Below are positions 31,265-32,714 of a stretch of 42,673 nt of DNA, one piece after another. The notes below the pieces were generated by a model. It was not told the DNA's origin and searched no databases. It saw only the letters and a program-made list of their open reading frames with translations. Source of the DNA: Actinomycetota bacterium (GTDB lineage Bacteria > Actinomycetota > Thermoleophilia > Miltoncostaeales > Miltoncostaeaceae); contig VGCE01000011.1 in assembly GCA_016870155.1 (NCBI GenBank), forward strand, positions 1 through 42,673. The letters are read 5' to 3'. Each line of letters opens with the position of its first letter. The first letter of the stretch is position 1. A program made the position numbers and the translations under genes.

Positions 31265-31606
31265 TCAGGTTGCTTCATCCCCGGTCGGCACGGCTGCATC
31301 GTCCGCCAGCATGGGGAACGCGGCCACGGCGTCGTGCGCGGTGTCCTCGCCTGCCTTCTCCGCGCGCGCGGCCCGCACCTCGGCCAGGCGCGACTCCACC
31401 TCGGCGATCTCGGGGGCGAGCGCCTCGGAGGTGAGATCACCTTCCAGGGCAAGGTCGTACGCGCGGGCGCCCAGGGCCGCCAGGGCCTGGCGGTGCCGGC
31501 GCTCGAGCACGCGCTTCTGCCCCTCGATCCGCGCGCGGTGAAGCGACCCGCGCATGTCGTGGGCCACGCGTCCCGCCGTGCTGGTGACCGATCGGATGAC
31601 GGACAT
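31265..31606 (-). CDS. Helical coiled-coil protein, unknown
   Basis: A 113-residue mostly helical protein starting MSVIRSVTSTAGRVAHDMRG, with a basic middle (RIEGQKRVLERRHRQAL) and an acidic coiled-coil segment (EIAEVESRLAEVRAARAEKA). ATG 31606 has TACGCT (31613-31618, minus strand) six bases upstream, so it is chosen over an upstream ATG at 31732. Divergent from the pilin-like genes. Family not recognised. Confidence 0.6.
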   Translation of the reverse strand: MSVIRSVTSTAGRVAHDMRGSLHRARIEGQKRVLERRHRQALAALGARAYDLALEGDLTSEALAPEIAEVESRLAEVRAARAEKAGEDTAHDAVAAFPMLADDAAVPTGDEAT

Positions 31607-31701
31607 GCGCCCAGCGTACAGCGGCCGGTTGTGGCAGGCAGGCGCGCCAGCCGTCACGAGGCGGCACACACGGGCGCGCCCGGCGGCCTTAGCGTCGCGG
31701 C

Positions 31702-32457
31702 ATGGCCGGGATCGCGCACAGGCGGTGGTCATCAGGGCAGGCGACGCTCGAGCACATCGGGCTGGTGCTGGTGGTCGCCCTCATGTTCGGGGCGCTCGGC
31801 ACCTGGGCCGTGCGGGGCTTCCAGCCGCCCGAGGCGCCGCCGCCGGTGATCGAGCGCGTGGCGGCCCCGCTGTTCGGCGGGCTCGCCACCGGAGCGCCCG
31901 CCACGGATGGGGCGTCGGCGGGCACCGCTGCCGGTGCCGATGCCCGTACCGCTGTATCAGACGCCGTGAGCCAGGGCGGGGGCGCCGTGGCGCTCCCGGC
32001 GGGCATGCGTTCCATGGCGCGCGCCATGGAGCGCGCGGCCGGTGCCATGACCAGCGCGGCGGGCGAGGGGGAATCCGGCGTCCCTGCGCGCGGCGAGCAC
32101 AGCGTGGTGCGGCGCATCTGGGATGGCGTCCTGTGGTGGGGCGCGCTCAACGTGGACGGGCAGATCGAGGCCGGCAAGGGGTTCCTCGAGCAGATCGGCG
32201 TGCGAGCCGAGGACCTGGTGAAGGACCCGGTCAAGACCGTCGAGGGCGCCATCGATCGGCTCTCGCGGCCGCCGGTCACGAGCACCGCTGATCGCGTGGC
32301 CAACATCGTGCGGGCGCTGTCGGGCATCGGCGACCGGCCGTTTCGCGAGTCGTTCCTCGGCATCTCGCGCGACCTCGGCGGGCTCGGCGCCGACTGGCTC
32401 ATCGCGAAGTTCGCCCGGGGCGCGGGAGAGGTGCTCGGGGAGTTGCTGGGCGGGTGA
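31702..32457 (+). CDS. Pilin-like protein with GQxTLE signature, long form
   Basis: A 251-residue protein whose N-terminus MAGIAHRRWSSGQATLEHI leads into a hydrophobic helix (about 19-40). This is the class III/Tad-like pilin arrangement: short basic leader, small residue plus Gln, then Thr-Leu-Glu with Glu at position 5 of the mature segment. The mature part is long, Ala/Gly-rich (50-130) with helical segments AMERAAGAMTSAAG and DPVKTVEGAIDRLSR. ATG 31702 lies six bases after TAGCGT (31690-31695). The stop overlaps the next pilin-like gene. A Tad assembly apparatus or prepilin peptidase is not in the window. Confidence 0.7.
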   Translation: MAGIAHRRWSSGQATLEHIGLVLVVALMFGALGTWAVRGFQPPEAPPPVIERVAAPLFGGLATGAPATDGASAGTAAGADARTAVSDAVSQGGGAVALPAGMRSMARAMERAAGAMTSAAGEGESGVPARGEHSVVRRIWDGVLWWGALNVDGQIEAGKGFLEQIGVRAEDLVKDPVKTVEGAIDRLSRPPVTSTADRVANIVRALSGIGDRPFRESFLGISRDLGGLGADWLIAKFARGAGEVLGELLGG

Positions 32458-32714
32458 AAACCATCGGAGCAAGGGGGTTGGACGTGATTGATGTGCTTTC
32501 GGCGCGCGTGCACGCATGGGCGGTGCACGCCTGGTGGCGGACGCGGGATGCCCGCGGGCAGGGCACGGTGGAGTACGTGGGGATGGTGGTGATGGTGACG
32601 CTGCTGGTGGCCGCGGTGGCCGTGGCGGCGAAGGGCTGGGCGCCGGATATCGGCAACGCCCTGAAGAAGGCGCTCACCGGCGCGATGAACCACCTCACGG
32701 ACGGCTTCGGATGA
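32454..32714 (+). CDS. Pilin-like protein with GQGTVEY signature, short form
   Basis: An 86-residue protein with a longer leader (MKTIGARGLDVIDVLSARVH, then TRDARGQGTVEYVG) followed by a hydrophobic helix GMVVMVTLLVAAVAVAAKGW and a short amphipathic tail. The GQGTVEYVG stretch is nearly identical in layout to the upstream protein's GQATLEHIG. GTG 32454 overlaps the upstream TGA by four bases (GTGA), so the two are translationally coupled. Size and helix match Flp/TadE-type pilins. It is followed by a convergent dehydrogenase gene. Confidence 0.72.
   Translation: MKTIGARGLDVIDVLSARVHAWAVHAWWRTRDARGQGTVEYVGMVVMVTLLVAAVAVAAKGWAPDIGNALKKALTGAMNHLTDGFG

What the first reader, a model, noticed from the sequence alone, without database searches (positions are those of the whole stretch)
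31702..32714. Coupled pilin-like pair with a GQxT(L/V)E(H/Y)(I/V)G signature and no assembly genes
Both proteins have basic leader, GQ, then T-(L/V)-E and a hydrophobic helix, and are joined by a GTGA overlap. The long form carries a 200-residue extension. The nearly fixed GQxT(L/V)E(H/Y)(I/V)G motif may be a processing site of a distinct prepilin class. No Tad/Flp ATPase or peptidase lies nearby.
Basis: partly seen in the sequence, partly recalled or inferred. Interest (0 to 1): 0.55.

Follow-up and report, generated by a model that had tools for sequence, protein, structure and literature searches.

The report
Tad-type pilin pair, machinery elsewhere
Two neighbouring genes of a freshwater actinobacterium look like the building blocks of a Tad/Flp-type surface pilus whose motor and peptidase genes lie elsewhere in the same genome, so the pair is not a new pilin class, although this split gene layout is unusual.

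Summary
The two ORFs and the motif are real. The long form is 31702-32457. The short form most probably starts at GTG 32484, behind its own Shine-Dalgarno, so the GTGA overlap is probably not used. The motif reads G|Q-x-T-(L/V)-E-(Y/H): inferred cleavage after Gly, Glu at +5, Tyr or His at +6. That is the published Flp/Tad site G/XXXXEY, and +1 Gln is already reported for Gram-positive Flp pilins. The window contig has no T2SSE or A24 match, but the genome has one tadA-tadB-tadC cluster with TadZ-like and CpaB/RcpC genes and a third prepilin-like gene, and one TadV-sized A24 peptidase, on other contigs. The long form is in 20 of 20 genus genomes. A 99%-complete family member lacks both pilins, the ATPase and the peptidase. 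In another family a short-form relative lies within 9 kb of tadA. Best reading: major pilin (short) and large minor pilin (long) of a split Tad system. Against it: no curated Flp or TadE model matches, none of 80 named loci shows Tad genes nearby, and one genus member seems to have lost the Tad cluster yet keeps the pair. Cleavage and piliation are untested.

The parts
31702..32457 (+). long prepilin-like protein, 251 aa: leader of 12 residues ending in Gly, Gln at +1, Glu at +5, His at +6, hydrophobic helix, variable linker (about 41-132), conserved C-terminal part (about 133-251), predicted helical at low confidence
32484..32714 (+). short prepilin-like protein, 76 aa from the conserved start: leader of 25 residues ending in Gly, mature part of 51 residues, Glu +5, Tyr +6; candidate major pilin
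32471..32477 (+). AAGGGGG, probable Shine-Dalgarno of the short gene, G-rich in the genus homologues shown
32454..32457 (+). GTGA overlap (alternative upstream GTG); probably not the start in use
31735..31760 (+). motif of the long form, G|QATLEHIG (inferred prepilin peptidase site after the first Gly)
32556..32581 (+). motif of the short form, G|QGTVEYVG (inferred prepilin peptidase site after the first Gly)
31690..31695 (+). TAGCGT, -10-like element 6 bases before the ATG of the long gene; TAnnnT kept 6-7 bases before the ATG in the 18 genus loci compared: probable leaderless promoter (inferred)
31265..31606 (-). divergent small gene with no Pfam match; a gene of similar look (by reading, not searched) lies near the short pilin in G021, G022, G023 and G024; function unknown, not shown to belong to the system

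Best explanation
The pair encodes pilin subunits of a split Tad/Flp (type IVc) pilus system. Both are inserted in the membrane. The genome's single TadV-sized A24 peptidase cleaves after the Gly before Gln. The short mature subunit (51 aa: one hydrophobic helix plus one further, amphipathic-looking helix) polymerises as the major pilin, driven by the TadA ATPase and the TadB/TadC platform with TadZ-like and CpaB/RcpC proteins, whose genes span about 4.5 kb of another contig. The long form is a minor pilin or pseudopilin that displays its C-terminal part at the tip or base of the filament. Shown: gene structure, conservation, presence of the machinery, joint absence in one genome. Inferred: cleavage, assembly, roles of the two subunits, any adhesion or DNA-uptake function.
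For: Site and architecture match G/XXXXEY Flp pilins (passages); in the model the break between leader helix and membrane helix falls at the site (residues 23-26; mean pLDDT 83, but 66 in block 21-30). One T2SSE in the genome, nearest NCBIfam model TadA (TIGR03819, E 1.8e-95, below its cut-off), with two T2SSF proteins, a CpaE-like ATPase and an SAF/RcpC protein and a third prepilin-like gene, G|STTAEYLG, downstream of tadC. One A24 peptidase whose domain starts at residue 4. G020 (99% complete) lacks long form, short form, T2SSE and A24; its glpX lies next to the phosphoesterase, where the Tad cluster sits in relatives. In G036 a short-form relative lies 8.8 kb from tadA and two long GQxxVE genes 7.0 and 7.7 kb from it; T2SSE, two T2SSF, RcpC and a CpaE-like protein are confirmed there. 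dN/dS 0-0.08 for the mature short form and 0.04-0.31 for the long-form C-terminal part in five pairs. 54 of 75 short forms hit the class III signal peptide model weakly (E up to 1).
Against: No curated pilin model reaches its cut-off: Flp_Fap finds nothing in the genome and 1 of 75 short forms at E 0.053; TadE matches 1 of 75 (E 0.00062), not the window protein; none of 19 long forms hits TadE or Tad. G006 keeps the pair and the peptidase but has no T2SSE match, and its methyltransferase lies beside glpX where the cluster should be. G021 has the short form but no A24 match (73% complete). 0 of 80 named loci have Tad genes within the DNA held. At class level co-occurrence is uninformative: 16 of 16 other-family genomes have T2SSE, 5 of 16 a short form. 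The joint absence rests on one genome. The long form has His at +6, and the G024 long form has Ala, not Gln, at +1. The long-form model is poor (pLDDT 66, pTM 0.34), and no solved structure matches either protein convincingly.
Confidence: 0.75

Rival explanations
1. The pair is processed by the A24 peptidase but works without the Tad motor, for example as membrane-anchored envelope proteins or with another assembly route.
For: G006 lacks a T2SSE match and shows a methyltransferase-glpX junction without the cluster, yet the pair and peptidase remain. G001-G006 differences in the mature short form are all synonymous (51 codons), and the long-form C-terminal part has dN/dS 0.04. The glpX of that contig is nearest to G001 among four genomes compared (95.3% identity), and the pilin loci of the two are 92.9% identical. 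Short-form genes stand apart from Tad genes in 80 of 80 named loci, as far as the DNA held reaches.
Against: G006 is a fragmented MAG (95% complete), and a second contig end overlaps that methyltransferase at only 88.7% identity, so the bin may be mixed. For the other six genus genomes without a T2SSE match, contigs end beside or inside the cluster. G020 lacks everything together.
Confidence: 0.13
2. A distinct prepilin class with its own dedicated peptidase and machinery.
For: GQxT(L/V)E is almost fixed in both proteins, and no Flp or TadE model matches.
Against: One A24 peptidase and one T2SSE match in the genome; +1 Gln and G/XXXXEY are known in Gram-positive Flp pilins (passages); the third prepilin of the Tad cluster shares G|xxTxEYxG without the Gln.
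Confidence: 0.05
3. The long form is not a filament subunit but an accessory protein (anchor or regulator) that only shares the leader; the short form alone is the pilin. This overlaps with the best explanation for the short form.
For: G022 keeps a short form, no long ORF was called beside it, and the long-form profile found only a short N-terminal match there, at the short form's place. Matches of the profile beyond its N-terminal half are confined to the family in 199 genomes sampled.
Against: Shared N-terminal segment (10 of 30 residues identical at fixed register), adjacency kept in the genus, +1 Gln and +5 Glu invariant in 19 aligned long forms (but Ala at +1 in G024).
Confidence: 0.2

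Closest known systems
Flp pilin of Tad (type IVc) pili, e.g. the 77-aa Flp of Micrococcus luteus (PMC4322843, passages)
   Same: length, G/XXXXEY site, one hydrophobic stretch, peptidase gene away from the tad genes as described for actinobacteria
   Different: no match to Flp_Fap; gene not in the tad locus; QGTVEYV almost fixed
TadE/TadF/TadG minor pilins
   Same: longer prepilin-like protein with a C-terminal domain, encoded beside a short pilin
   Different: no match to PF07811 or PF13400; 251 aa, predicted all-helical at low confidence; His at +6
EppA-processed (class III, PF04021) pilins of methanogens (PMC3875500 and PMC4858521, passages)
   Same: +1 Gln, +5 Glu, small size, some stand-alone pilin genes outside the main locus
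   Different: archaeal; reported to lack +6 Tyr, which the short form has; model match below cut-off

Membership tests
Flp/Tad major pilin (short form) | G/XXXXEY processing site before a hydrophobic stretch | tested here: met
   G25|QGTVEYV in the window; in 22 aligned sequences only one Val-to-Ile at +4 and one Val-to-Leu at +7; that it is cleaved was not tested
Flp/Tad major pilin (short form) | prepilin of 50-80 residues | tested here: met
   76 aa from the conserved start (86 from the upstream GTG); mature part 49-54 aa by the counting in 79 of 80 named relatives (script filter 45-65; the 80th, L111, is cut by its contig end)
Flp/Tad major pilin (short form) | match to Flp_Fap PF04964 | tested here: not met
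   0 matches in the genome; 1 of 75 sequences at E 0.053
Flp/Tad major pilin (short form) | gene inside a tad locus | tested here: not met
   window contig has no T2SSE; 0 of 80 named loci; only the G036 relative is near one
Tad system | TadA ATPase, TadB and TadC, TadZ, CpaB/RcpC in the genome | tested here: met
   T2SSE, two T2SSF, SAF and RcpC above Pfam cut-offs; TIGR03819, TIGR03815 and TIGR03177 below theirs, and TadZ supported only by matches below cut-off
Tad system | TadV-type A24 peptidase without N-terminal domain | tested here: met
   PF01478 covers residues 4-106 of the protein
Tad system | extracellular filament of the short subunit | not testable with these tools
   needs microscopy or mass spectrometry
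TadE/TadF pseudopilin (long form) | match to PF07811 or PF13400 | tested here: not met
   0 of 19 members at E up to 1
Class III signal peptide PF04021 (short form) | score above the curated cut-off | tested here: not met
   window protein 10.3 bits against 23.7; 54 of 75 sequences match at E up to 1, best 0.0021
distinct prepilin class with dedicated peptidase | a second prepilin peptidase | tested here: not met
   one A24 match in the genome; other peptidase families not searched, and about 2% of the genome may be missing

The most novel reading that the evidence does not exclude
The pair is a peptidase-processed pilin module that can outlive loss of the Tad motor: in the G006 lineage it is kept under purifying selection without TadA/B/C, so the subunits have a motor-independent role or use another motor.
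Probability: 0.1. Interest if true: 0.55.

Novelty: new variant of a known kind. Interest (0 to 1): 0.3.

Why it matters
Tad systems are described as almost exclusively single-locus, with multi-locus ones very rare (passages of PMC6668835), and Flp genes as almost always inside tad loci (passage of PMC4322843); a search for pilins inside tad loci would miss these. The short form is a conserved stand-alone gene in many Thermoleophilia records, a class for which my searches listed no Flp or Tad pilin work. It names the subunits to tag in a cultured relative and shows +1 Gln, shared with EppA-processed archaeal pilins, kept in this bacterial branch.

Tried and rejected
Chance motif: rejected. A relaxed pattern gave 4 hits against 1 control hit; the two extra hits (C2, C5) were not followed up. 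Pfam and NCBIfam on the window's long form gave only UCR_14kD below cut-off; it matched 6 of 19 long forms (best E 7.1e-05), which I take as spurious. NCBIfam on 75 short forms gave only scattered weak hits. PDB by sequence and by fold gave nothing usable. A second A24 peptidase or T2SSE in the genome: none. Real absence of TadA in seven genus genomes: four (G009, G012, G016, G017) have contigs running from glpX into the first Tad-cluster genes and then ending, and G016 has tadC and the third prepilin on another contig; two (G001, G014) end within 700 bp of glpX and say nothing; only G006 shows a junction. Papers: no paper holds both 'Flp pilin' and 'Thermoleophilia', 'Solirubrobacter' and 'tight adherence', or 'Tad pilus' and 'orphan pilin'; one holds 'Miltoncostaea' and 'pilus' (listing only); 'DUF4244' is in three (listing only); one search listed 19 papers, none opened for it. 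Rows left out: A1 has 22 of the 26 short forms; A2 leaves out two long forms cut by contig ends (G011, G014); A3 has 75 sequences (the window plus 74 of the 79 short forms).

Full report
What is there. The window is a whole contig (G000:C11, 42,673 bases) of a 1.81-Mb, 97.8%-complete genome in 16 contigs. Its near relatives in the named collection are mostly MAGs titled Miltoncostaeales, Thermoleophilia or Actinomycetota, a few with other titles. Two ORFs on the + strand carry the motif: the long form (31702-32457, 251 aa) and a short form ending at 32714.

Start of the short form. In 18 genus genomes and two other genera the codon 24 residues before the motif Gly is ATG or GTG and follows a G-rich Shine-Dalgarno. 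In 15 genus pairs the gap from the long-form stop to this start is 26-103 bp, and in G017 an in-frame TGA four codons upstream excludes a longer protein. An automatic choice preferred the neighbouring ATG at -23 in several genus loci and an upstream ATG at -34 in one, so the exact start is likely, not proven. I take GTG 32484 (76 aa). Upstream of the long form, TAnnnT lies 6-7 bases before the ATG in the 18 genus loci compared, which suggests a leaderless transcript (inference).

More than chance. The back-translated motif occurs twice in the genome, both here, with 0 in the reversed control; composition predicts about 0.0005. The long form is in 20 of 20 genus genomes, some cut by contig ends, and in 2 of 5 other family genomes by single-sequence search. 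A profile adds G021 and further family genomes; matches beyond the N-terminal half are confined to the family among 199 class genomes, of which 81 match at all (15 candidates scored per genome). The short form is in 19 of 20 genus genomes (G011's contig ends in the long form), 4 of 5 other family genomes and 5 of 16 class genomes. Nei-Gojobori estimates give dN/dS 0-0.08 for the mature short form, 0.04-0.31 for the long-form C-terminal part and 0.36-0.75 for its linker, over five pairs.

Machinery. The genome has one T2SSE match. Its neighbours are two T2SSF proteins, a TadZ-like ATPase and an SAF/RcpC protein; NCBIfam's nearest models are TadA, the actinobacterial CpaE homologue and CpaB, all below curated cut-offs. 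Directly downstream of tadC is a third prepilin-like gene (G|STTAEYLG, Pro-rich tail), so the cluster has a candidate substrate of its own. One A24 peptidase lies on a third contig shortly upstream of chorismate synthase; the same neighbour lies within 0.5 kb in G008 and 3 kb in G024. Published work says tadV is not clustered with tad genes in actinobacteria (passage, PMC4322843).

Links between pair and machinery. (a) G020, 99% complete, lacks long form, short form, T2SSE and A24; its phosphoesterase and glpX lie side by side where the cluster sits in relatives (labels confirmed on the own-genome copies). Its genus has 4 genomes, none with a long-form match. (b) In G036, of another family, a short-form relative and two long GQxxVE genes lie within 9 kb of tadA on one contig; T2SSE, two T2SSF, RcpC and a CpaE-like protein were confirmed there. 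(c) Genus genomes with T2SSE: 13 of 20; with A24: 19 of 20. Of the seven without T2SSE, six are compatible with assembly gaps. At class level T2SSE is in 16 of 16 other-family genomes, so co-occurrence there says nothing.

Contrary evidence. G006 (95% complete) has no T2SSE match. On one contig its methyltransferase adjoins a short gene and glpX, with the whole cluster missing. The glpX there is nearest to G001 among those compared (95.3% nt identity), and the pilin loci of the two are 92.9% identical, so the contig probably belongs to this lineage. A second contig end overlapping the methyltransferase at 88.7% leaves a mixed bin possible. Among 80 named loci (best 80 of 139), none has Tad genes in the DNA held, up to 10 kb per side and often less (1.13 Mb in all). 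The TadA queries found all four control loci; TadC and TadZ queries were less sensitive. So the split layout is common for this pilin, and gene neighbourhood in the genus gives no direct support.

Comparison. The site is the Flp site G/XXXXEY cut by TadV (passage). [quoted passage not shown] 54 of 75 short forms weakly hit the class III signal peptide model and 10 hit DUF4244, of unknown function. The peptidase's only NCBIfam match is EppA, weak (E 0.0062). Flp_Fap and TadE models fail. Models: the short form has a leader helix, a break at the cleavage site, a membrane helix and a further helix (mean pLDDT 83); the long form is all-helical and of low confidence. I say the pair works like Tad pilins; membership in the named pilin families is not met by model.

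Verdict. A conserved pilin pair of a split Tad system: a new variant of a known kind, of moderate interest. Function (adhesion, DNA uptake) is not shown.

Noticed in passing
G000:C2, L025 6477-6755 (-): Third prepilin-like gene (G|STTAEYLG, Pro/Arg-rich tail) directly downstream of tadC; similar genes in G008, G003 and G024 and G016.
   Followed up: partly
G006:C94, L184 55-2334: Apparent clean loss of the whole Tad cluster (response regulator to third prepilin) between a methyltransferase and glpX, with pilin pair and A24 peptidase kept.
   Followed up: partly
window 31652-31701: -10-like TAnnnT 6-7 bases before the ATG of the long gene, kept in 18 genus loci, suggesting leaderless transcription.
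   Followed up: partly
L107, L113, L114, L141, L146, L155: Public MAG records titled Bifidobacterium breve whose contigs encode close relatives of Thermoleophilia genes; the titles look wrong.
   Followed up: no
L061 2827-3492 (-): In G036 a prepilin-like GQATVE leader is joined to a CHAP domain (PF05257, E 9e-08) in a 221-aa protein directly downstream of tadC.
   Followed up: partly
window 31265-31606 (-): Small divergent gene without Pfam match; genes of similar look lie near the short pilin in four other genera of the family (by reading).
   Followed up: no
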